DNA of 64,000 bases from Planctomycetota bacterium (GTDB lineage Bacteria; Planctomycetota; Phycisphaerae; Phycisphaerales; SM1A02), in assembly GCA_021414025.1 (NCBI GenBank), contig JAIOPG010000002.1:62001-126000 (forward strand). The letters run 5' to 3'. Of this stretch, positions 36,266-49,815 are shown piece after piece (within the stretch, counting starts at the first letter, position 1; each line of letters begins with the position of its first letter). Under the pieces are notes generated by a model. That model ran no database searches. It saw only the letters and a program-made list of their open reading frames with translations, and had not been told where the DNA came from. Made by a program: the position numbers and the translations under genes.

Positions 36266-36458
36266 GATGGATCCATCGTAACGGACACGCCTGGGGCAAG
36301 GACCCGTGCATTGTTCCAAAGGCCTCATGCGTGGTACCATGAAGCAGCGGCATGACGTTGCGTCGCCGCCGGCGATGGTCGGCGGTTCGTTGGGGCCGAA
36401 GAAGAATCTGGAATGATGTAGTGCGGTGACCACTCTCGAAAGATCGGAGGTTGCGCGT

Positions 36459-37289
36459 ATGGATCATGTTCAAAAGCAACTCAAGCAATTGGAGTCGGCG
36501 GTTCTGCAGCTTCAGGCCGACAAGGTCGCGTTGCGCGCCGAGCTGGACAAGTTGAAGGCGGGTTCCTTCGAAAACATCACCTGCAAGTCCTGGAAGATCG
36601 TGGACCAGCACGGCACCATGCGGATCAACGCCACCACGCTGCCCAACGGCCAGGCCGTGCTGCAGCTCTACGACATTTTCAACAAGCCGCGGATCGCCGC
36701 GGTCACGCTTCCCGACGGCACCGCGAGCGTGGTGTGGTTCGACAAGGACGGGGATGTCCGGATCGACGCGGTCACGCTTCCCGACGGCGCCGCCGTCGTC
36801 CGCTGGTGCGACAAGGAAAAGAAGTTGCGGATGAGCTCGGGAACCCACGCCGACGGCCACGCGGGCGTGTCCTGGCTCGACAAGCATGGGAAGGAGCGGA
36901 TCATCGCGGTCACCCGCGCCGACGGCCACGCGGGAGTGGGCTGGAGCGACAAGGCGGGGAACAAGCGGATCAGCGCGTCGACCGACACCGACGGCGCCGC
37001 GGTGGTGCGATGGCGCGACAAGGACAAGAAGATGCGGCTCAACGCGGGAACCTACGCCGATGGCCAGGCGGGCGTGGCCTGGCTCGACACGGAGGGCAAG
37101 TTGAGAATCCTCGCGGAGACGCTTGCCGATGGAACTCCCAGGTTTCCCTCGAAGGACCTGCTTCCCAACGCGCATCCGGCGGCGCATCAGCATGCGGCCG
37201 GGCAAAATCCGCCTCCGCCACCATTGCACGCGTCGGTTCAATCGCCGCAGCCCGCGGCGCATGCGACTGAAACCACCAAGCATGCCTGA
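36459..37289 (+). CDS. Coiled-coil protein with tandem ~23-residue DG repeats
   Basis: A 276-residue protein; start at ATG 36459 behind GGAGG, though GTG 36426 is in frame. Residues 3-40 form a coiled coil (LKQLESAVLQLQADKVAL). Residues 50-235 comprise about eight repeats of 22-23 residues of the form DKxGxxRIxAxTxxDGxAxVxW, each predicted as a beta hairpin, giving a solenoid or propeller-like fibre. The C-terminus is His/Pro/Ala-rich. No signal peptide is seen. No family assigned; trimeric fibre proteins use similar short repeats. Confidence 0.8.
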   Translation: MDHVQKQLKQLESAVLQLQADKVALRAELDKLKAGSFENITCKSWKIVDQHGTMRINATTLPNGQAVLQLYDIFNKPRIAAVTLPDGTASVVWFDKDGDVRIDAVTLPDGAAVVRWCDKEKKLRMSSGTHADGHAGVSWLDKHGKERIIAVTRADGHAGVGWSDKAGNKRISASTDTDGAAVVRWRDKDKKMRLNAGTYADGQAGVAWLDTEGKLRILAETLADGTPRFPSKDLLPNAHPAAHQHAAGQNPPPPPLHASVQSPQPAAHATETTKHA

Positions 37290-37332: not shown

Positions 37333-38370
37333 ATGAACTTCAAGACTTCATTGTCAGCGTTGTTGATGGCGTGTTCGGTGGTTGTGGCGGCACCCTCGGC
37401 GCCTCCAGCAACCGCTCCTTCGAAGCCCGGCACCAATGCCGCGGCCCCCGCGAAGCCTGAAACAACTCCTCCCGCCGTTCCCGCCACAGCCGGCGCCGCC
37501 GGCGACCTGGCCTGGGCCGAGGTGCTGGAGGCCAAGCCCGATCCCAAGGTCGTCACCGATGCTGACCTGCTCAGCCGCATCGCCGCCACCGGCCTGCCCT
37601 GGCGGGTGAAGGACAAGGCAAGCGGCATCGAGATGCTGCTGGTGCCGCCGGGAAAGTTCATGATGGGCGCCAGTCCCGGCGACGACGAGTCTGCCGAGAT
37701 GGAGAAGTTTCTTGCCGAGAAATATCCCGAGTACAAGTACACCGAGCATCCCGCTCACGAGGTCACCATCACCAAGCCCTTCTACCTCGGCCGCACCGAA
37801 GTGACGCAGGACCAGTGGCGGAAAGTGATGCTGAACAATCCAAGCAAGTTCTTGATCTCCGACAAGATGAAGAGCGATTCGGCAAGCCTGAAGAAAAAGG
37901 ATCAGGAGCTGGTTCTGCCCGTGGAGCAGGTTTCATGGGATGACTGCCAGAAATTCTGCGAGAAGACCGGCCTGCGGCTGCCCACCGAGGCGCAGTGGGA
38001 GTACGCCTGCCGGGCCGGGAATCCCAAATCCCGTTACGGCGAAATCGAATCGATCGCATGGAGCGAAGAAAATGCCGCGGACAGGACTCATCCCGTGGGA
38101 CTGAAGGCCTCGAACGCACTGGGTTTCCAGGACATGATCGGCAATGTGTGGGAGTGGTGCTCGGACTGGTACCAGGGGGACTACTACTCGGCCTGCGCTT
38201 CGGGCGTGGTGGATCCCGCGGGGCCGGAAAAGGGCGAATGGAATGGGCATGTGTTGCGCGGCGGCTCCTGGGACAGTCGCTCGGTGGGATGCCGCGCGTC
38301 GATGCGCCGTTACTTTGCGCCCACCCTGACCGTCAACTACCTCGGGTTCCGCGCCGCGAGGACACCCTAG
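37333..38370 (+). CDS. Exported formylglycine-generating enzyme family protein (SUMF1-like)
   Basis: A 345-residue protein. A signal peptide (residues 1-20) is followed by a Pro/Ala-rich linker and an FGE-sulfatase domain from about residue 98: EMLLVPPGKFMMGASPGD, YLGRTEVTQDQWRKVM, LPVEQVSWDDCQKFC, LRLPTEAQWEYACRAG, and at the end RGGSWDSRSVGCRASMRRY then NYLGFRAART. Family members activate sulfatases or, in Gram-negative surfaces, serve as accessory or Ser/Thr-kinase-linked proteins. Catalytic Cys pair is not clearly present, so a non-enzymatic role is possible. Confidence 0.85.
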   Translation: MNFKTSLSALLMACSVVVAAPSAPPATAPSKPGTNAAAPAKPETTPPAVPATAGAAGDLAWAEVLEAKPDPKVVTDADLLSRIAATGLPWRVKDKASGIEMLLVPPGKFMMGASPGDDESAEMEKFLAEKYPEYKYTEHPAHEVTITKPFYLGRTEVTQDQWRKVMLNNPSKFLISDKMKSDSASLKKKDQELVLPVEQVSWDDCQKFCEKTGLRLPTEAQWEYACRAGNPKSRYGEIESIAWSEENAADRTHPVGLKASNALGFQDMIGNVWEWCSDWYQGDYYSACASGVVDPAGPEKGEWNGHVLRGGSWDSRSVGCRASMRRYFAPTLTVNYLGFRAARTP

Positions 38371-38703: not shown

Positions 38704-39381
38704 TCAGGCGCGGCGGCGACGCATGGTGAGCAGGCCGCCCATGCCCACCAAGGCCAGCGAGCCGGGGCCCGGGACATTGCCCGAAACCTCGACGATGTAA
38801 TCCTGGTAGGAGGGGCTTTGCAGACCGACCAGGTTCGCGCTTCCGCCCGAGCCGACCGCGGCGAGCAGATTCGCCAGGTAGACGCCGGCGGCGCCGGAAT
38901 AACCCGTGGCCTGGAAGGCGCCGCTGCCGACGCCCAGGGGGCCGCCGAAGTCCGTGATGGTTTCCCAGACGGCCAGCTGGAAGGCGCAGGCGTAGGCGGC
39001 GTTGGCGCTGAACTGAGCTCCATTGGCGAACGCGTAGAGGTCGGCGATCGCCGCTGCCTTGGCCGCGCCCATGGGAGCGGCGTTGGGAATCAGGTCGATG
39101 GCGACCACGCTGTAGGGGCTCGGTCCGCCCGGGCTGAACTGGTAGACGTCGCCGCAATAGACCAGGTAGCTGCCGTTGGCGAAGGCCGACGTGTTGCTGC
39201 TGTTGGTCACGTTGAGGACCTGCTGGCCGGAGTAGACGCCGCCGCTGTAGCCGGGCGACAGGATGCTGACGACTTCGCAAGCGCCCATGCCGATCTCCTG
39301 CACATCAACTGTGGTCGCCCATGCGCCGGCGCAGATTGAGGAGGCGAGGAGAAGGGAGGCGGAACGAATCATTGGTTTCAT
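38704..39381 (-). CDS. PEP-CTERM exported protein
   Basis: A 225-residue protein. A signal peptide (cleavage near ICAGAWA, residues 17-23) is followed by a Gly/Ser/Ala-rich beta domain with PGGPSPYSVVAIDLIP. The C-terminus has the sorting tag VPGPGSLALVGMGGLLTM followed by Arg residues, the PEP-CTERM pattern read by exosortase. The family is found in matrix-forming bacteria. It has its own terminator (38648-38675) and an upstream 210-base gap. Cargo function unknown. Confidence 0.85.
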   Translation of the reverse strand: MKPMIRSASLLLASSICAGAWATTVDVQEIGMGACEVVSILSPGYSGGVYSGQQVLNVTNSSNTSAFANGSYLVYCGDVYQFSPGGPSPYSVVAIDLIPNAAPMGAAKAAAIADLYAFANGAQFSANAAYACAFQLAVWETITDFGGPLGVGSGAFQATGYSGAAGVYLANLLAAVGSGGSANLVGLQSPSYQDYIVEVSGNVPGPGSLALVGMGGLLTMRRRRA

Positions 39382-39591
39382 GGTGTGGCTTCTTTGCAAA
39401 AGGGGAACCGGTCGAAAGGAACGAAACAGCCGGTCACGACTGCCACACACAGATGCCATCGAAATGACGCAAGAGAAATGAAATGAAAGGTTTTAAATGA
39501 GAAACGGGTTATTTTCCCCGGAATTCCCGTCAATTCAGTCCATAACTCACGAACGCATAGGGTTCTTTTCGGACTTTGAAAATCGCGGCGT

Positions 39592-42194: not shown

Positions 42195-42249
42195 GGAACT
42201 CCTCGTTTGGCAACGGAGCAGCTCAGGCGTGATTGCCCGCAAAACCAAA

Positions 42250-42275
42250 GAATGGGCGGTGGGGGATTCGAACCT
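42250..42275. other. attL: left copy of 26-bp core
   Basis: Identical to 49679-49704. It is a tRNA-Tyr 3'-end fragment (T-arm and acceptor strand), not a working gene. It lies 56 bases upstream of the transglutaminase-like gene. Similarity ends sharply on both sides. Confidence 0.92.
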
Positions 42276-42485
42276 ATAGCGAATTCATCGGGAAATGTAG
42301 AAGAATCACTTTCGGGCGGCGCAAATTGCGGCGCACTTGGGAGCGATTCCATTACTCCAACAGTGACAAATGCCCCCACTGACCCGGACTTGGCAGCGGT
42401 TGTAACCGCCTGGCCTGACCTTCCCCCAGCGTTGCGGGCGGGCATAGTGGCGATGGTGAGAGGGGTTGGTTCGCCGGCAATTTAG
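42276..42485 (+). pseudogene. Stored C-terminal tail of the element's integrase
   Basis: Starting at the first base after the core, 69 codons read open in frame with the integrase and end at TAG 42483-42485. The peptide has a GGANCGALGSDS segment and ends DPDLAAVVTAWPDLPPALR then AGIVAMVRG, a tail I recognise from planctomycete integrases. In the integrated state no gene starts here; in the excised circle the 26-base core joins these codons to the integrase after ...GGGGFEP, giving 496 residues. That in-frame match is direct sequence evidence. Confidence 0.85.
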
Positions 42486-42585
42486 ACAGCGGCCAAGCCG
42501 CTACCATTGGGTGTCGTTGGGACGGCGTCTCAACTGGTTTGCATTGCCCATCGCGATGTCTGCCTACCAATAAGGTGCTTTGTTC

Positions 42586-43677
42586 ATGGATAACTTGCCT
42601 TCACCTCCCTGCTCGACCGAATCGCAATGTCCGACCGCGTGCGGTCCAGGCGAATGCCAGCGAACAAGCAAAGTTCGCACATTGCTGGTCACAGGTGCGG
42701 CGGTGGTGATCCTGGGCGTGTTGGTCTGGCAGGGAGTCACATCGGGCGGCAACCCTGATCCGCTGGCGGAGAACATTTCGCCCGCCGCCGCCGTGATGAA
42801 CACCGGCATCCTTGTCTTCCGCGAGGGACTGGAAGCGATCCTCGTGCTCGCCGCGCTGACAGCCAGCCTCGTGCGCTCGGGCCGCGGATACGCCAAGCCG
42901 GTGGCGCTGGGTGCGGGCCTGTCGATTCTCGCGTCGGTGGCCACATGGTTCATCGTGGTCGCGATCATCGACAGCATTAACGCCCCCGCCCTTCATGTGC
43001 AGGCGGCGACTGGCCTGCTCGCGATCGTGGTCCTGCTGGTCATCATGAACTGGTTCTTCCACAAACTTTACTGGGCTGGGTGGATCTGCATGCACGAGCG
43101 CCGCAAGCAGGCGATCATTCACGAGCCGGCACGCAGCGAGCGCGCGATCTTCTGGGGTCTGGTGCTGCTGGGCGTGACGGCGGTGTACCGCGAAGGTTTC
43201 GAGATCGTGCTGTTCCTGCAGAGTCTGCGCCTGCGCGCGGGCGAATCGCCGGTGCTGCTTGGAACAGCGATCGGGCTTGGACTCACAGGGATCGTGGCCG
43301 TGCTGACATTTGTCGCGCAGCGCAAGTTGCCCTATCGCAAAATGCTCATAGCCACCGGCATCATGCTCGGTGCCGTTTTGCTCGTCATGGTCGGCGAGAG
43401 CGCACAGGAACTGCAGCAAGCCGGATGGATCAAGACGACTCCGGTCGGGCTGCCGCTGCCCGAATGGATGGGCATGTGGTTCGCGATTTTCCCGAATGTG
43501 GAAGGGCTTGCGGCACAGGCCATCGCGGCGTTGTTAGTCATTGGATCGTACTTCCTCGCCAAGCGCAGCGGCGGTGGGCGCAGAGGTCGTGGCGAGAAAA
43601 TTCGCACGACCCCTCTAGTGGTCTCAGCCCGCATGTCGTCGGGAAATTCCATGACGATGTCGGCTGCCACGCCATAA
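42586..43677 (+). CDS. FTR1-family iron permease-like protein
   Basis: A 363-residue protein; ATG 42586 follows AAGGTG. About seven membrane segments; two REGxE motifs typical of FTR1/EfeU iron permeases, FREGLEAILVLAAL near residue 80 and YREGFEIVLFLQSL near 200, which bind Fe(III) during transport. The N-terminus has an odd Cys-rich start (CSTESQCPTACGPGECQ) before the first segment. EfeO and EfeB partners are absent. GC content resembles the chromosome, unlike the rest of the element, so it may be captured cargo. Confidence 0.88.
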   Translation: MDNLPSPPCSTESQCPTACGPGECQRTSKVRTLLVTGAAVVILGVLVWQGVTSGGNPDPLAENISPAAAVMNTGILVFREGLEAILVLAALTASLVRSGRGYAKPVALGAGLSILASVATWFIVVAIIDSINAPALHVQAATGLLAIVVLLVIMNWFFHKLYWAGWICMHERRKQAIIHEPARSERAIFWGLVLLGVTAVYREGFEIVLFLQSLRLRAGESPVLLGTAIGLGLTGIVAVLTFVAQRKLPYRKMLIATGIMLGAVLLVMVGESAQELQQAGWIKTTPVGLPLPEWMGMWFAIFPNVEGLAAQAIAALLVIGSYFLAKRSGGGRRGRGEKIRTTPLVVSARMSSGNSMTMSAATP

Positions 43678-43764
43678 ATAAAGCAATGCTTAGATGCCCA
43701 AAACGGTCTACAGCATCTCAGCAATGGATTGCCCCGCTGAAGAGTTTCTTATCCGCAACCGCTC

Positions 43765-43871
43765 TCGACTTTGGTCCATGCGGAGGCTGTCCAAGCGACC
43801 TTGACGGCTCTGGTGAAGTAGATGATGCTGATGGCGGATCGATGCTTCTCGACTTCGGCCCCTGCCAATAG
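43765..43871 (+). pseudogene. Dockerin-like C-terminal fragment
   Basis: About 35 codons end in TAG: ALDFGPCGGCPSDLDGSGE then VDDADGGSMLLDFGPCQ. This matches the end of the secreted protein at 59392-60201 (DLDGSGEVDGGDLG...LDFGPC), including Asp residues of a calcium loop. No start codon, signal or N-terminal domain precedes it, so it is a gene fragment inside the element. Confidence 0.75.
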
Positions 43872-44559
43872 ACAAATCGCAAGGCACGAACCCTTGCAAT
43901 GGCAACATTGGTCAATACCCTATTGGGGTAGGGGCGGGTGCACTTTATAGGTCAAAATGCGGCTCACCCGTGCAATGTCTGCAAGTGGAACGGGTCCTTC
44001 CACGCAAATAATGCTTTTGGGGTCTCTACGATGAGCCATGAAGCGGTATCGAGTTTGTTGGGGGCAAGCCCGAATTATTGCACTTGAAAGGCGCAACTCT
44101 TACAATCCCTCCAGGGGGGTGGGGGGGAACCATGTAAAGAGCGCGCTTTCAGTGGGGGTAGGGGAAGCCGCGCACAGCCGGGGAGGGCAAAAAATAAATC
44201 CGATTCTCCCTGCCACCGTGGATGCCTCTCACTGCGCGCGTGAAAGGATAACGAAGGTTCTTTTTTTGCATTTTCAGCGGGAAATGTTCACGCTTAGCAC
44301 AACTTGAGAGGCGAAATTTCACCTTCAATGGCTTCCTGGACGGTGTGATTCATGGTCGAATCAGGGTATGCGATCAATTTGCCTGGTATCCATTTCATGC
44401 ACTTTTTCTAATTTCAGATATCGCCTATTGCATCCCCGTTGACTCGCCATAAAATCACTGAAATGAGGTAGCGGATTGATCGTCCGCGAACGGCTGGGCG
44501 TGGTTGCGGCGATTCACTCTCCCCGCTGCCACGCCTGGCCGGCCACTAAAGGAGAGTGC
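43872..44559. other. Non-coding stretch of the element
   Basis: No convincing gene is seen. A small frame at 44038-44307 has poor composition and crosses a G-rich run (ggggggtgggggggaacc near 44114). A six-base dyad lies at 44346-44363 (tgattc ... gaatca) and a hairpin (gtggaa...ttccac) near 43986-44004. One TATGCG copy occurs near 44367. The stretch may include the origin or operators of the element. Confidence 0.5.
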
Positions 44560-45642
44560 ATGACACCTAGCGAATGGGACGATTTACGCGAGGATGCGCG
44601 GGAATTTTCCAAGACGAATCCAAAGATGCAGCACACGCTTGTTTTTATCCCAAGTCAAGGGGTGCCGGGCGCGCAGGAATTATTAACCGCATCGTTCGAC
44701 GATGCGCGTGACATTCGGAGCACGCTGCGCTTGCTTGGTATTCCTTGTCCCGGTGACGACGAAGCAGGTATCAAAGGGTTGAAAATGTGGCATCGCCACG
44801 GCCACGGATCGGTTCACACCTTGCTTTGGCCCATTGAGCCGCATACGGAATCCAGCGCCGACTGGAAACGACTGTGGGAAACGCTCTGGGGTTTGATCGG
44901 CAGTCGCGTCGCTACGGTCCTGCCCGACGCCTTTGCCGTTGGCGTCAGTGATGCGCCGACAATCGAGAATGGCGCGTCCGATCCGTCCTGGTTGCTGCAT
45001 TGGCTAGCGTGGCCGGGGCATTTGAATCATCGGCTCGCCAAAGTGAGGTGGCGAGTGTTCCCTTTGAAAAATGGTGCATCTATGACTTTGGATGAACGCT
45101 TCCCCAGCGGGTGTCCGAGCAAAATCTTTGCGAACAGGACTAAGACCGAATTGCAACATGTTCTCCAGCAATACGGTGTCCGAGGGTCGCCACTGGAAAA
45201 TTCCCAACTTACCGATTGGTGGTCAAGCACGATCGACGCCGGCCCCACGCTGGTCGCGGCGATTGATTGGTTGCGGCCGCGTTTGAGTCCCAAAGCGGAT
45301 GGACTGCCCACAGGGAACGAAGGCCGCCAGTTGCCTGAACTGGGGCCGCATGATCGGCAAGCGTGGCAATTGTCAATGATGCAAGGGATGACTCAAGGCA
45401 AAATCGCAGAAGCATTGAACAAGGAACACCGTAAGACCTACAACCAAGGGCAAGTGTCGAGGATGATTGCCCGCGCCAAAGTCCACGCGGAAGCAAATGG
45501 GGTGGACAAATTGGCCGAACAAGTAGCAGGGAAGATCAAACGGCCCATGACGGTTGACCCTGGGCGGCTGAATCTAGGGCCTAGAGTCGATAAGCGAAAC
45601 CCGCGCCCGAGCGATCGGGCGAGGGAAAATGACGACGACTAA
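44560..45642 (+). CDS. Unknown protein with C-terminal helix-turn-helix
   Basis: A 360-residue protein; ATG 44560 follows a strong AAAGGAGAG. The first 250 residues are rich in Trp and His (GLKMWHRHGHGSVHTLLWPI) with no recognised fold; a short Leu/Asp section and TPR-less helices follow. Residues 295-340 (MQGMTQGKIAEALNKEH, YNQGQVSRMIARAKVHAE) look like a sigma- or resolvase-type helix-turn-helix. The end is basic and Asp-rich (RENDDD). Possibly the element's initiator or master regulator, since TATGCGCT repeats begin just past its end. Confidence 0.7.
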   Translation: MTPSEWDDLREDAREFSKTNPKMQHTLVFIPSQGVPGAQELLTASFDDARDIRSTLRLLGIPCPGDDEAGIKGLKMWHRHGHGSVHTLLWPIEPHTESSADWKRLWETLWGLIGSRVATVLPDAFAVGVSDAPTIENGASDPSWLLHWLAWPGHLNHRLAKVRWRVFPLKNGASMTLDERFPSGCPSKIFANRTKTELQHVLQQYGVRGSPLENSQLTDWWSSTIDAGPTLVAAIDWLRPRLSPKADGLPTGNEGRQLPELGPHDRQAWQLSMMQGMTQGKIAEALNKEHRKTYNQGQVSRMIARAKVHAEANGVDKLAEQVAGKIKRPMTVDPGRLNLGPRVDKRNPRPSDRARENDDD

Positions 45643-45652
45643 TAGCGCGTGA

Positions 45653-45720
45653 TATGCGCTTAAAAACCCTCGTTTCTTTCGGGGTATGCGCTTGTATGCG
45701 CTGTAATTCTTGAATATGCG
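45653..45720. repeat. TATGCGCT direct repeats, iteron-like
   Basis: Copies at 45653-45660, 45685-45692 and 45695-45702, plus a TATGCG-at copy at 45715-45722, all in the same direction, 10-32 bases apart. They sit between the HTH gene and the first excisionase-like gene, in AT-rich DNA. Such arrays are binding sites of Rep or Xis proteins. Which protein binds is not known. Confidence 0.65.
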
Positions 45721-45768
45721 ATGACTCCAAAGGGAAGCCAATTCGGTTTCCCATTAGGAGCATTTTCA

Positions 45769-45969
45769 ATGAATCAGGAATTTGATCTGTTGACGGCCCG
45801 AGAGTTGGCAAAGCGTTTGCGCGTTTCAACCGATACGGTCCGAGCGTGGGCGAGGCGGGGAGTCATCCCTTCATTGCGGCTGTCACCCAAAGTCATTCGT
45901 TACAAATCCGAAGAAGTGCTGTCCGCGCTTTCGATCAGGTCGGCAAAGGCGGTGTGCCGTGGACAATGA
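45769..45969 (+). CDS. Excisionase-like MerR-type helix-turn-helix protein
   Basis: A 66-residue protein; ATG 45769 follows TAGGAG. LLTARELAKRLRVSTDTVRAW and RRGVIPSLRLSPKVIRY match the winged helix of excisionases and small MerR-like proteins. It probably bends DNA at the attachment site for excision, or acts in replication control. The next gene starts before its stop. Confidence 0.8.
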   Translation: MNQEFDLLTARELAKRLRVSTDTVRAWARRGVIPSLRLSPKVIRYKSEEVLSALSIRSAKAVCRGQ

Positions 45970-46171
45970 ATCAAAAAAGCAAGTTTCTCCAACCCTTGCA
46001 CTTCGCCCAAGGGAAGCGGCCCGTGCGCTGGGAATTGGTCAAAGGAAACTTTGGGAACTGACCAAGACTGGGGTGATTCCATCCGTGCGGATAGGTACAT
46101 GCGTCCTCTACCAAGTTTCGCAATTGGAAGCGTGGCTGACTGCGCGAGCGAGCAAGGCAGGTCAAGAATGA
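45959..46171 (+). CDS. Second excisionase/helix-turn-helix protein
   Basis: A 70-residue protein read from GTG 45959, overlapping the previous gene by 11 bases. LRPREAARALGIGQRKLWEL and TGVIPSVRIGTCVLYQVSQL again show the Xis-type fold, related to but distinct from its neighbour. Two excisionase-like proteins in tandem suggest one for excision and another for gene control. Its stop overlaps the primase start. Confidence 0.75.
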   Translation: MDNESKKQVSPTLALRPREAARALGIGQRKLWELTKTGVIPSVRIGTCVLYQVSQLEAWLTARASKAGQE

Positions 46172-48138
46172 AAGCCTCTCAAGGTGATTGGCTTGCCGTG
46201 AACAAGTCACTTCCATGTCCGATCTGTGGCAAGCCGGATTGGTGCGCTCAATCGGAAAATGGCGCTGTGCGCTGCATGAGAATCAGCGATCCGCCGGCTG
46301 GTTGGCAATTAGTGAAGCGAAATGATGACGGCGGCACGGTGTATCGGCGTGATGGTGAGCCGGATCGACATGCAAACCTTGCCGGCGTGAAAACCAAACC
46401 GGCTAAGAATTCCAGGACTTATTCGACACTAGAAGCAGCGATTGAAGCGGCAACGAAATTTACAGGCGGAGAATTTGTGAAACATTGGTCCTATGAACGC
46501 AGCGAAGGCATAGAAGCATTCATTGTTTGCCGGTTCAATCTGAAAGATGGGTCAAAGCAATTCCGCCCGATTCACAAGTGCGACGATGGCAAATTCATCA
46601 TTGCCGATCCCCCTGGTTTGTTGCCGCTGTATCGCTTGCCGGAATTGCAAGACGCGGCGAGAGTCTATGTATGCGAAGGTGAAAAAGCGGCGGAAGCGGC
46701 ACGGTCAATCGAATTGATCGCAACCACTTCCGCGCATGGATCAAAGAGCGCAGCGAAATCAGACTGGCAACCACTTGCCGGCAAAGATGTAGTGATTCTG
46801 CCGGATAACGATTCCGCCGGCGAGATTTACGCTGCGAATGTGGCGGGCATTCTGCATGGTTTGGGATGCACTGTGCGAATTGTGACCCTGCCGGATTTGC
46901 CAAAGGGAGGCGATATTTTCGACTGGATCGAAGCGCGGGAATGCATCGAATCAGAATCACTGCGCGACGAAGTGGCGTGTTTGGCCGGGGCAGCGCCTGT
47001 CTGGCAACCATCCGAAAATCAATCGCAATCGCAATATGGACGATCTGAACCAATCATTGTGAGGCTTTCGGATGTGGAGCCTGAACAGGTCGCATGGCTT
47101 TGGCCCGGTCGAATCGCACTTGGAAAACTAACGCTGATTGCTGGCGATCCGGGTTTAGGGAAATCATTTCTTACCTTGGACATGGCGGCGAGAGTTTCGA
47201 ATGGGATGCCTTGGCCCGATCGACCCAATGAAGCCAATCCAAGTGGCGGCATTGTGTTACTGAGCGCAGAAGATGATCTAGCGGACACAATCCGGCCACG
47301 GCTTGACGCAGCGAATGCGAATGTGAGCCGAATTCAGGCGCTGAAGGCAATCCGTTCAGTTGGCGGCACTGAGCGCATGTTTAACCTTTCCCGTGACCTG
47401 CCAAATTTGGAAGTGGCGATCAAATTGGTAGGAGATTGCAGGCTTGTAGTGATTGACCCTGTAACGGCGTACTTGGGTGGCGTGGATTCGCATAAGAATG
47501 CAGAGATTCGCGGATTGTTGGCCCCGCTTGGTGAATTGGCGGCGCGGCATCGGGTTGCGGTGGTTGCGGTAACGCACTTGAACAAGAGCGGATTCGGTCC
47601 GGCGATCTACCGGGCTATGGGTTCGCTCGCGTTTGCTGCTGCTGCGCGTGCGGCATGGGCAGTAAGCAAAGACAAAAACGACCCGCTCAGGCGGTTGCTA
47701 CTGCCAATCAAAAATAACATCGCGCCGGATACCGGCGGATTGGCATATCGGATCGAACCTGTGGGTTTGATCGGTTGCCCAGTGGTAGCGTGGGAAGCAG
47801 ACCCGGTGGCGTTAAGCGCCGATGATGCCTTGGCAAGCGATCGCATTGAAGGCGGTAATAGAAACGAACGAAATGATGCTGTGGATTGGTTACGCAAAGC
47901 ATTGGCTGACGGCCCAATGCTGGCGGAAGAAGTGAAGCAGCAGGCCGAACAAAACGGTATTAGTGCGGCAACCCTTCGACGCGCCAAGCGTGAAGCCGGG
48001 GTAGAGGCAAAGCGAGAGGGGTTTGGTCCAGGTGCGAAATGGTACTGGATGCTTCCCGAACACCATAGATGCTCACCCCAACTCATAGATGCTCACCCTA
48101 AAACAGTGAGCACCAATGGAGAAATTGAGCATCTATGA
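46168..48138 (+). CDS. Toprim primase fused to RepA-like helicase
   Basis: A 656-residue protein coupled to the gene before it (ATGA). An N-terminal zinc ribbon (CPICGKPDWCAQSENG) is followed by a Toprim domain (VYVCEGEKAAEAAR; VVILPDNDSAGEIYA), then a hexameric RepA/DnaB-type ATPase: LTLIAGDPGLGKSFLTLDMA (Walker A) and LVVIDPVTAYLGGVDS (Walker B), with AVTHLNKSG as the sensor. The C-terminus has a winged-helix-like segment. It likely primes and unwinds the element for plasmid-like replication after excision. Confidence 0.9.
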   Translation: MKASQGDWLAVNKSLPCPICGKPDWCAQSENGAVRCMRISDPPAGWQLVKRNDDGGTVYRRDGEPDRHANLAGVKTKPAKNSRTYSTLEAAIEAATKFTGGEFVKHWSYERSEGIEAFIVCRFNLKDGSKQFRPIHKCDDGKFIIADPPGLLPLYRLPELQDAARVYVCEGEKAAEAARSIELIATTSAHGSKSAAKSDWQPLAGKDVVILPDNDSAGEIYAANVAGILHGLGCTVRIVTLPDLPKGGDIFDWIEARECIESESLRDEVACLAGAAPVWQPSENQSQSQYGRSEPIIVRLSDVEPEQVAWLWPGRIALGKLTLIAGDPGLGKSFLTLDMAARVSNGMPWPDRPNEANPSGGIVLLSAEDDLADTIRPRLDAANANVSRIQALKAIRSVGGTERMFNLSRDLPNLEVAIKLVGDCRLVVIDPVTAYLGGVDSHKNAEIRGLLAPLGELAARHRVAVVAVTHLNKSGFGPAIYRAMGSLAFAAAARAAWAVSKDKNDPLRRLLLPIKNNIAPDTGGLAYRIEPVGLIGCPVVAWEADPVALSADDALASDRIEGGNRNERNDAVDWLRKALADGPMLAEEVKQQAEQNGISAATLRRAKREAGVEAKREGFGPGAKWYWMLPEHHRCSPQLIDAHPKTVSTNGEIEHL

Positions 48139-48171
48139 ACCCAATGAGCCTTCGATCAATGAGGAAATCCA

Positions 48172-48420
48172 ATGACACTACTTGACAAACAGAAAGCAAG
48201 TGATACAATTGAGCCTATGAAGATCAGCGATGCAGTACGCAAAGCAATCGAAACGAGCGGCATGAGCCGGTACGAACTCGCAAAGCGAAGCGGGGTTTCG
48301 CAAGCGGCACTCTCAAAGTTTGTTAATGGCCGGGGTATGCATATCGCGATCCTGGACAAAATCGCCGGCCCGCTGGGTCTACGGCTGACAGTCAAAAAAT
48401 CCAAACGAAAGGCAGGGTGA
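48172..48420 (+). CDS. XRE-type helix-turn-helix protein
   Basis: An 82-residue protein; ATG 48172 follows GAGGAAA, though an internal ATG at 48217 would give 67 residues. ELAKRSGVSQAALSKFVNG is a clear Cro/CI helix-turn-helix, and the C-terminus is basic (KKSKRKAG). It ends just before the integrase start and could repress integrase or replication. No toxin partner is adjacent. Confidence 0.85.
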   Translation: MTLLDKQKASDTIEPMKISDAVRKAIETSGMSRYELAKRSGVSQAALSKFVNGRGMHIAILDKIAGPLGLRLTVKKSKRKAG

Positions 48421-48423
48421 GTC

Positions 48424-49815
48424 ATGGCAAGCATTTCACGCGATGCAAACGGTACAAAGCGGGTTTTATTTACGGATGACCAAGGCAAGCGCCGCACAAT
48501 TCGGCTGGGCTTGGTATCGACCAAGGCGGCTGAGTCATTCAAACTGCGCGTTGAGGCGCTACGAACCGCTCGAACCACTGGAACACCACTAGACGGGGAA
48601 TTGTCCGCATGGCTGCGCGACCTGCCAGACTCGATGCACACTCGCCTGGTGGGGGTTGGGCTTGTTGAATCACGCGAGAGCGCTGCGACTATCTCGCTGG
48701 ACAATCTTTTGCATCAATTCGATGCGACGGCAATAGTCAAAGACGGCACGCGGGCCGCATATCGACAAACCACGGGAAGCCTGCGCGATTACTTCGGCGG
48801 TCAAGTACCCATTGCCAAGTTGACTACTGCGGATGCGGACGGCTGGCGTAAATCAATTTCCGAATCAAAACTTGCCGTTGCAACCGTTGCCAAGCGTGTG
48901 CATGTCGCCAAGGCAATCTTCAATAAAGCGATCAAATGGGGCATGATTCCAAAAAGCCCATTTGCTGATTTGCGGGCTGGGATGCAGTCAAACCAAGAGC
49001 GGGCGTTTTATGTCACTCGCGAAATGATGACGGCGATACTTGCTGAGTGTCCCGATGACCAATGGAGGGGGATTCTGACGCTTTGCCGCTATGCGGGGCT
49101 TCGCTGCCCGTCCGAATTGGTCGGTTTGAAATGGAGCGATGTGAATTGGGAACTTAGCCGCTTGACGGTTCGAAGCCCCAAGACTGCTGGACACGAAGGC
49201 CATGCCATGCGGTTTGTCCCCATTTCACAAGAGGTCATGCCGATTCTGCAAGCACTGTTTGACGATGCCGAGCCGGGAGCCGAAGCGATCATTCCAAGAT
49301 TGCCCAATTCATCGGCCAACTTACGAACGACTTTCACCAAAATCATCATTCGGGCGGGTCTTAAACCTTGGCCACGGCTTATCCAAAATTTGCGGGCATC
49401 TTGCGCGACTGATTGGGTGGAACGAGTCCCAGCCCATTCAGCCGCACGCTGGCTAGGTCATAGTCCGATGATCGCAGCGCAGCACTACCTTCAAGTTCGG
49501 GATGCCCATTTTGACCTTGTGACGGGCGGCGCAAAAAGCGGCGCACTCAATGTCCAAAATGCGGCGAAGCACCCGTCCGCACACGGACGCGCCGAATCGC
49601 TGAAACAATCAAATGTGTCTTGTTTCTCCGATGCTTTGCGAACAGATACGAAAGTGCGCAGCAGCACGCAAAAACTGGGAATGGGCGGTGGGGGATTCGA
49701 ACCTCCGAAGGCTAAGCCAGCAGATTTACAGTCTGCCCTCGTTGACCACTTGAGTAACCGCCCTGAAATGTCATGCAAACGCCGACGCGAACGTTCAAAC
49801 ATACCGTTCCTTTGA
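48424..49815 (+). CDS. Tyrosine integrase of the tRNA-Tyr element (tail swapped on integration)
   Basis: A 463-residue recombinase in the integrated state. Catalytic residues: Arg227 (YAGLRCPSELVGL), Arg324 in QNLRASCATDW (an Asn replaces the usual His), His346 in WLGHSPMI and Tyr355 in AAQHYLQV. Residues 420-427 are encoded by the attachment core itself (MGGGGFEP), and residues 428-463 come from antisense tRNA-Tyr and flanking DNA, so the natural tail is missing; it is stored at 42276-42485. In the excised circle the protein would be 496 residues. The start follows an AGGCAGGGTGA site. Confidence 0.93.
   Translation: MASISRDANGTKRVLFTDDQGKRRTIRLGLVSTKAAESFKLRVEALRTARTTGTPLDGELSAWLRDLPDSMHTRLVGVGLVESRESAATISLDNLLHQFDATAIVKDGTRAAYRQTTGSLRDYFGGQVPIAKLTTADADGWRKSISESKLAVATVAKRVHVAKAIFNKAIKWGMIPKSPFADLRAGMQSNQERAFYVTREMMTAILAECPDDQWRGILTLCRYAGLRCPSELVGLKWSDVNWELSRLTVRSPKTAGHEGHAMRFVPISQEVMPILQALFDDAEPGAEAIIPRLPNSSANLRTTFTKIIIRAGLKPWPRLIQNLRASCATDWVERVPAHSAARWLGHSPMIAAQHYLQVRDAHFDLVTGGAKSGALNVQNAAKHPSAHGRAESLKQSNVSCFSDALRTDTKVRSSTQKLGMGGGGFEPPKAKPADLQSALVDHLSNRPEMSCKRRRERSNIPFL
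49679..49704. other. attR: right copy of 26-bp core
   Basis: Identical to 42250-42275 and made of the tRNA-Tyr 3' end (plus three bases beyond it). It lies in frame inside the integrase gene and ends exactly on a codon boundary (GAA CCT at 49699-49704). Confidence 0.92.
49682..49763 (-). tRNA. tRNA-Tyr (GTA)
   Basis: The minus strand forms a full class II tRNA of 82 bases: acceptor GGGCGGT/ACCGCCC with discriminator A, anticodon loop CTGTAAA (anticodon GTA) closed by GCAGA/TCTGC, a long variable arm (GGCTTAGCC), and T-loop TTCGAAT closed by GGAGG/CCCCC with one weak pair. No CCA is encoded. The gene is the integration target of the element and is intact. Confidence 0.95.

What the first reader, a model, noticed from the sequence alone, without database searches (positions are those of the whole stretch)
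36459..37289. Cytoplasmic-looking protein built of about eight 23-residue DG repeats
Repeats DKxGxxRIxAxTxxDGxAxVxW with a leading coiled coil and a His/Pro-rich tail resemble short fibre-forming hairpins, yet no signal peptide is visible. The repeat DNA is itself tandem, so copy number may vary between strains. No family comes to mind.
Basis: seen in the sequence. Interest (0 to 1): 0.5.

Follow-up and report, generated by a model that had tools for sequence, protein, structure and literature searches.

The report
Soluble coiled-coil protein with open beta-sheet
A planctomycete bacterium carries a gene for a protein predicted to be a short coiled coil followed by one long, flat, open beta-sheet made of eight similar hairpins, probably a small scaffold that holds a partner along a conserved tryptophan-lined face; most of its relatives look anchored in the membrane, but this one does not.

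Summary
The ORF at 36459-37289 encodes 276 aa: an N-terminal coiled coil, a cap strand, seven regular 23-residue repeats plus a degenerate eighth, and a disordered His/Pro-rich tail, with no hydrophobic segment. AlphaFold2 predicts every repeat as a beta-hairpin, all joined into one open meander sheet, with or without an alignment. The closest solved structures are engineered OspA self-assembly mimics (same 23-residue period), the TCP/G-box domain of centriole protein CPAP, and MORN repeats. The protein belongs to a family that has no model above cut-off in Pfam or NCBIfam; a profile finds it in 32 of 294 Planctomycetota genomes. Of 75 distinct members, 63 have a hydrophobic (membrane or signal) stretch; this one is in the minority without. 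One face of the sheet is conserved and hydrophobic (I-A-T / A-V-W), the other variable except for an Arg ladder. My reading: a coiled-coil oligomer whose sheet is a binding platform, or packs face to face with a second copy. The structure is a good prediction; oligomer, partner and function are inferred; fibre formation is not shown. In one relative, a soluble plus anchored gene pair sits between the end repeats of an 8.3-kb tRNA-integrated element. Moderate interest: a natural, apparently free-standing beta-sheet.

The parts
36446..36450 (+). Shine-Dalgarno-like GGAGG, 8 nt before the ATG
   Evidence: read
36459..37289 (+). gene of the 276-aa coiled-coil / hairpin-repeat protein
   Evidence: in-frame relatives in other genomes
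36462..36560 (+). coiled coil, residues 2-34
   Evidence: heptads; helix 2-34 in both models
36576..36602 (+). cap strand ITCKSWKIV, residues 40-48, with Cys42 invariant in 16 aligned members
36603..37154 (+). eight 23-residue units, residues 49-232 (unit 8 degenerate)
   Evidence: strands
37143..37160 (+). C-terminal cap FPSKDL (LPTKDL in relatives), residues 229-234
   Evidence: P230 and D233 invariant
37161..37286 (+). His/Pro-rich tail, residues 235-276, predicted disordered
37333..38370 (+). neighbour: FGE-sulfatase (SUMF1-like) gene, 43 nt downstream; link to the repeat gene only suggestive

Best explanation
The gene makes a soluble, presumably cytoplasmic, rod-like scaffold or adaptor. 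(1) The N-terminal coiled coil joins two or three chains (coil predicted, oligomer inferred). (2) Each 23-residue unit folds as a beta-hairpin, and the units join edge to edge into one open meander sheet of about 16 strands (predicted). (3) The sheet is two-faced: one face repeats I, A, T, A, V, W in nearly every unit, the other is variable except for one conserved Arg (shown from sequence, on the predicted strand register). (4) The conserved face is the working surface: it holds an extended, possibly proline-rich, segment of a partner, as CPAP's TCP domain and MORN4 do, or packs on the same face of a second chain (inferred). The protein is a version, without the membrane segment, of a family whose members mostly have one; the coil, cap and repeats are kept, so the sheet stays in the cytoplasm (inferred).
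For: AlphaFold2 with 11 rows: mean pLDDT 84.5, pTM 0.61, 88-97 by block over residues 51-230, helix 2-34, 16 strands. Single-sequence control: same helix and 15 of the 16 strands, pLDDT 69.2. Foldseek PDB: engineered OspA 2fkj E 3.0e-11, MORN1 6t6q E 3.0e-6. VIA: OspA mutant 6kk9 Z 15.3 (rmsd 4.2, 175 aligned), 2fkj Z 15.2 (4.2, 197), CPAP G-box 4lzf Z 14.1 (6.0, 154), MORN1 6t6q Z 12.6 (6.5, 188). Faces: in 112 units of the close group, in-face positions 8/10/12/18/20/22 carry 2.86/2.63/3.07/2.17/1.95/3.68 bits, out-face 9/11/19/21/23 carry 0.77/0.90/0.94/0.84/0.75, R7 4.01; in 196 further units 1.08-1.64 against 0.42-0.69. Heptads in the window protein and seven relatives without hydrophobic segment. 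Hydropathy is bimodal: 63 of 75 distinct members at 1.43 or more, 12 at 0.95 or less, none between. Binding by such sheets: CPAP TCP domain and a proline-rich STIL motif (PMC3776556, passages); MORN4 groove and the myosin 3a tail (PMC7725318, passage).
Against: No partner, expression or localisation data. No oligomer was modelled. In the single-sequence control only one of five models was good (69.2; the others 44-51). The TCP domain is described with both faces hydrated and as mainly monomeric, so the hydrophobic face here is a departure. In-face position 6 is weakly conserved (0.62 bits), and the 112 units include near-identical orthologues, which inflates the bits. The tail is not conserved, which weakens a tail-to-sheet idea. 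The eight units show no third-codon-position excess (258/217/257 differences at positions 1/2/3). The window protein's own sequence match to OspA is only E 0.4.
Confidence: 0.45

Rival explanations
1. Fibre former: the sheets stack edge to edge or face to face into filaments, as the first reader suggested and as the OspA mimics were designed to imitate.
For: Nearest solved structures are engineered self-assembly mimics with the same period; both sheet edges are open in the model; coiled coil could seed assembly.
Against: The similar natural TCP domain is predominantly monomeric and judged unlikely to self-associate that way. Conserved caps at both ends of the array look like stoppers. No assembly data.
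Confidence: 0.15
2. Cytoplasmic partner of an anchored paralogue: soluble and anchored forms join through their matching coiled coils, linking a cytoplasmic sheet to one outside the membrane.
For: Two tandem gene pairs, one copy with and one without hydrophobic helix (L052 7809-9236, L054 446-1495), with similar N-terminal heptads; the window's genome has two paralogues that read as TM-bearing (L003, L004).
Against: The window gene stands alone, its paralogues lie on another contig; pairs may simply be fresh duplications (84% identical 51 bp around the L054 starts); topology of the anchored form is inferred.
Confidence: 0.15
3. A decaying copy of an envelope protein that lost its membrane segment and has no function.
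For: Most members have a hydrophobic segment (63 of 75); no close orthologue in the genus; no third-position excess among units.
Against: Open frame with good ribosome site, eight units without indel, in-face residues kept in units 1-7 with one Leu for Trp; regular heptads in place of the helix; further helix-less members elsewhere, one clade of six weakly rejected (p-AU 0.033).
Confidence: 0.12
4. A phage- or element-derived structural or accessory protein.
For: In L054 the gene pair lies between the end repeats of a tRNA-Gly element with integrase and helicase/primase; orphan terminase-small-subunit-like genes near copies in L052; the longest relative scores PHROG families of unknown function down to E 1.2e-8, summed over repeats with no stretch passing alone; one unannotated phage record at E 4e-3; phage proteins among fold matches in BFVD.
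Against: No match for the window protein or for L054 in 50,697 phage records; three viral-contig scans confirmed no relative (these find close relatives only); the window gene lies outside the window's own element.
Confidence: 0.08

Closest known systems
Engineered OspA peptide self-assembly mimics (PDB 2fkj, 6kk9, 3eex)
   Same: 23-residue hairpin period and open single-layer meander; Z about 15; the relative L006 matches 8xwg by sequence at E 5.7e-7 in register
   Different: Long arrays there are designed; the sheet is held between two globular ends. The window protein itself reaches only E 0.4, profile A1 E 0.0018. Two tandem arrays of one period inflate each other's scores: likeness, not descent.
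TCP / G-box domain of CPAP and Sas-4
   Same: Free-standing open meander sheet; Z 12.1-14.1
   Different: Eukaryotic centriole proteins; no Tcp10_C match listed for the window protein; TCP faces both hydrated, one face here hydrophobic
MORN repeats
   Same: Elongated twisted sheet of hairpins with a conserved aromatic groove; Z 12.6
   Different: No YEGEW, GxG or LxY pattern in the units (by eye); no MORN match listed for the window protein, though one of 16 relatives scores MORN_2 at E 6.3e-4
Rhs / YD repeats
   Same: Weak profile similarity: window protein RHS_repeat E 0.016, 3 of 16 relatives, best E 2.8e-4; Foldseek E down to 1.0e-7
   Different: TM-scores only 0.13-0.19; window protein below the curated cut-off; open sheet, no toxin or large cocoon
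Planctomycete proteins with D..G..R......DG repeats (uncurated)
   Same: Same unit: D1, G4, R7, G16 and alternating hydrophobic positions
   Different: Most carry a hydrophobic TM or signal stretch; the window protein has none

Membership tests
D..G..R......DG 23-residue repeat family (uncurated, defined here) | tandem 23-residue units with D1, G4, R7, G16 and hydrophobic in-face positions | tested here: met
D..G..R......DG 23-residue repeat family (uncurated, defined here) | N cap with Cys42 and C cap P..D of the close subgroup | tested here: met
   C42, P230 and D233 among nine invariant columns of 16 rows
D..G..R......DG 23-residue repeat family (uncurated, defined here) | hydrophobic membrane or signal stretch (common but not defining: 63 of 75) | tested here: not met
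   maximum hydropathy 0.76; shared with eight other members with a complete N-terminus
OspA (Borrelia lipoprotein) | single-layer meander sheet | tested here: met
   predicted model only
[quoted passage not shown] caps) | tested here: not met
   no signal; model has coil, sheet and disordered tail
CPAP TCP / Tcp10_C | Pfam Tcp10_C profile match | tested here: inconclusive
   not among the 3 families listed at E up to 10, but HMMER's filters drop most weak matches
CPAP TCP / Tcp10_C | binds a proline-rich motif on the sheet | not testable with these tools
   needs a binding assay
MORN repeat | YEGEW, GxG and LxY motifs per repeat | tested here: not met
   units compared by eye with the motifs quoted in PMC7725318
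Rhs/YD repeat | RHS_repeat profile above curated cut-off | tested here: not met
   16 bits, cut-off 22
Filament-forming protein | self-assembly into filaments | not testable with these tools
   needs EM or light scattering

The most novel reading that the evidence does not exclude
A natural bacterial two-faced single-layer beta-sheet 'ruler' whose length is set by repeat number, made in paired forms: one anchored with its sheet outside the membrane, one soluble with its sheet in the cytoplasm, joined through matching coiled coils, and spread in part as cargo of small tRNA-integrated elements.
Probability: 0.12. Interest if true: 0.7.

Novelty: new variant of a known kind. Interest (0 to 1): 0.42.

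Why it matters
Open beta-sheets that stand without globular caps are unusual in nature; the CPAP paper presents its TCP domain as an unusual, novel architecture (passages). A bacterial family of regular 23-residue hairpins with up to 19 units (motif count) would supply natural examples of many lengths, with the same period as the designed OspA mimics, so that sheet length, stability and face chemistry could be compared in natural proteins. It also gives boundaries to an uncurated planctomycete family and shows that forms with and without a membrane segment coexist.

Tried and rejected
Phage origin (kept as a weak rival): no match for the window protein or L054 in 50,697 phage records; L052's protein hits one unannotated phage record at E 4e-3; three viral-contig scans confirmed no relative. 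PHROG matches of the window protein are E 0.031 or worse; some relatives do better, best E 1.2e-8, but no single stretch passes. Plasmids: 4 distant records, 23-27% identity, three Candidatus Manganitrophus and one Isosphaeraceae. PADLOC: no hit for the window protein at E 0.1, weak ones (E 0.01 or worse) for two L054 proteins. Other weak Pfam matches of single relatives, e.g. AIDA E 6.7e-5, were not followed. BFVD's best fold matches are MORN proteins of giant viruses, with some phage proteins of unknown role.

Cargo of the window's own element: rejected, the gene lies outside it; no direct repeats flanking the gene among those listed for 30000-56000.

Tree of members with and without hydrophobic segment: 78 columns, 1 of 18 inner branches starred; in that run my pattern cut L011 at the wrong place. 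Repeat with L011 cut at the cap and L035 and L031 dropped (long branches): 19 rows, one clade p-AU 0.033. Repeated loss is likely, not shown.

FGE-sulfatase link: of 92 loci with a repeat gene (many are copies of one place), 12 hold an FGE ORF in the stretch held = six places: window, G005:C85, G006:C115, G008:C29, G008:C66, G032:C6. Close neighbours only in the window, G005, G006 and G032; five other orthologues of the G005/G006 type (L011, L014, L016, L017, L032) show none in the stretch held. FGE genes are multi-copy, up to 11 matches per genome: suggestive only.

First motif pattern was wrong and found two unrelated ORFs; one search read minus-strand loci on the wrong strand; both redone. 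Groups were set by a pattern that misfiled a few rows (L013, L009, L033 fell in the second group); its unit counts are motif counts and are zero for eight members where the pattern fails. First genome-contig scan with the window protein found nothing.

Literature: listings showed no title about this family; many subscription papers are not in that library.

Full report
WHAT IS THERE. The ORF at 36459-37289 (+) starts with an ATG 8 nt after GGAGG and encodes 276 aa. Residues 2-34 form a coiled coil, 40-48 a cap strand, 49-232 eight 23-residue units without indels, 229-234 a C cap (FPSKDL), 235-276 a His/Pro-rich tail. The period is far from chance: 74 identities at lag 23, at most 23 in 5000 shuffles.

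FAMILY. No Pfam or NCBIfam family reaches its cut-off. The window's genome has two diverged paralogues on contig C7 (E 3.7e-16 and 1.8e-12); a fourth match at E 0.09 is not counted. Of 61 close genomes, the own one included, 20 match at E 0.001; of 294 across the phylum, own included, 32 match a profile at E 1e-6. The eight loci of named records are titled Planctomycetaceae (2), Phycisphaerales (1), Betaproteobacteria (1, perhaps a misbinned MAG) and uncultured bacterium (4). L052 is the record of the contig that genome-search runs G008:C29, a genome of the window's genus, so the window is taken to be a planctomycete. In 16 aligned close members C42, D49, R55, P230 and D233 are among nine invariant columns. 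More distant members begin with what reads by eye as a signal peptide, a lipoprotein signal or a TM helix, followed by the same D..G..R......DG unit. Unit number runs up to 19 by motif count.

WITH AND WITHOUT A HYDROPHOBIC SEGMENT. The maximum 19-residue hydropathy anywhere in the ORF is 1.43 or more in 63 of 75 distinct ORFs and 0.95 or less in 12, none between; near-orthologues are counted separately. Of the 12, L033, L041 and L073 run into a contig end at their start, leaving nine: the window protein, L006 (302 aa), L054 (110 aa), L009, L010, L018, L030, L051 and L070 (true starts of L030 and L070 unsure). Eight of the nine were tested for heptads; shuffles reach the observed a/d count 0 to 107 times in 5000, weakest for L051; L070 was not tested. 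Two tandem pairs join a form with and a form without the segment (L052 and L054). The L054 pair shares a 51-bp stretch, 84% identical, around its starts, a sign of local duplication. One clade of six segment-less members is weakly rejected, p-AU 0.033.

STRUCTURE. AlphaFold2 with 11 rows: mean pLDDT 84.5, pTM 0.61, blocks of 88-97 over residues 51-230, strands at unit positions 6-12 and 18-23. Without alignment the same helix and 15 of 16 strands appear at pLDDT 69.2 in the best of five models, the others at 44-51. Foldseek ranks engineered OspA first (2fkj, E 3.0e-11), then Rhs cores (E from 1.0e-7, TM 0.13-0.19) and MORN1 (E 3.0e-6). VIA: OspA mutants Z 15.3 and 15.2, CPAP G-box 14.1, MORN1 12.6; the tool warns that repeats give middling to high Z easily, and a shared fold shows no function. 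Against viral models the best match is a MORN protein of a pandoravirus, E 1.6e-7. By sequence the window protein reaches OspA only at E 0.4, profile A1 at E 0.0018, relative L006 at E 5.7e-7; in that search 2ol6, an OspA of 250 residues without the long designed array, is at E 0.025. I read this as convergence on one period.

TWO FACES. On the predicted register, in-face positions 8, 10, 12, 18, 20, 22 are mostly I, A, T, A, V/L, W with 1.95-3.68 bits in 112 units; out-face 9, 11, 19, 21, 23 carry 0.75-0.94 bits; R7 is 97% Arg. Position 6 is in-face but weak (0.62 bits), W22 is 62% Trp, and near-identical orthologues inflate the bits. The 196 other units show the same order at lower contrast. 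A conserved hydrophobic face on an open sheet asks for a partner. Proteins of like form do bind there: the TCP domain binds a proline-rich STIL motif and is described as a free-standing sheet, predominantly monomeric (PMC3776556, passages); MORN1 proteins dimerise through C-terminal repeats, and MORN4 binds the myosin 3a tail in its groove (PMC7725318, passages).

MECHANISM. Most likely the coiled coil joins chains and the tryptophan-lined face holds a partner segment or a second sheet. Shown: sequence anatomy, family, face conservation. Predicted: coil, sheet. Inferred: cytoplasmic site, oligomer, binding. A tail acting as ligand is speculative: only short Pro-rich ends (such as PPKKP) recur in relatives.

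CONTEXT. Upstream on the other strand are an unassigned ORF and a TPR-methyltransferase gene found in 1 of 16 genomes of the genus, its own. An FGE-sulfatase gene (PF03781) starts 43 nt downstream. Repeat genes stand close beside FGE genes in four genomes, but FGE genes are multi-copy. In L054 the pair lies between exact 47-bp repeats, 8.26 kb apart, one in tRNA-Gly; the other copy starts at the first base of the contig, so a circular or misassembled form is not excluded. In the window a different element at tRNA-Tyr (42235-49704) lies about 5 kb away and does not include the gene.

VERDICT. Real, well formed and uncurated; a new variant of a known fold type. The fibre idea is possible but unshown. 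Interest 0.42.

Noticed in passing
window 42235-49704: Integrated element at tRNA-Tyr (49682-49763, -): 41-bp end repeats 88% identical, integrase 48424-49815, primase/AAA gene 46051-48138, GC near 0.54 against about 0.62 around it.
   Followed up: partly
L054 1-8311: 8.26-kb element at tRNA-Gly between exact 47-bp repeats (left one at the contig's first base) with DnaB-like helicase/primase and integrase; it carries a pair of repeat genes with and without hydrophobic segment and a coiled-coil-like protein whose gene has 21- and 33-nt repeats.
   Followed up: partly
L052 1444-1917 and 9403-9711; L055 977-1279: Orphan Sf6-terminase-small-subunit-like gene (PF20901, first copy tested) with a similar second copy, and a DUF5681-like gene (below cut-off), beside repeat genes.
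   Followed up: no
L026 8928-9674, L052 4061-4522 and 11014-11487, L053 3300-3692: Small exported-looking proteins containing MKQ.[SN]TG near the start; those of L026 and L052 end in PPPPIDC.INAPR; repeatedly near repeat genes; no Pfam hit for the two tested.
   Followed up: no
window 37333-38370 and genomes of the genus: FGE-sulfatase (SUMF1-like) genes are expanded, with 11 matches at E 1e-40 in one 2.2-Mb genome.
   Followed up: partly
window 38707-39459 (-): Secreted-looking protein with a PEP-CTERM-like end, read by eye; no Pfam hit at E 0.001.
   Followed up: no
MT835648.1 16824-17504 (-): An unannotated phage record from human faeces matches the longest relative over 82% of its length at 27% identity, E 4e-3.
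   Followed up: no
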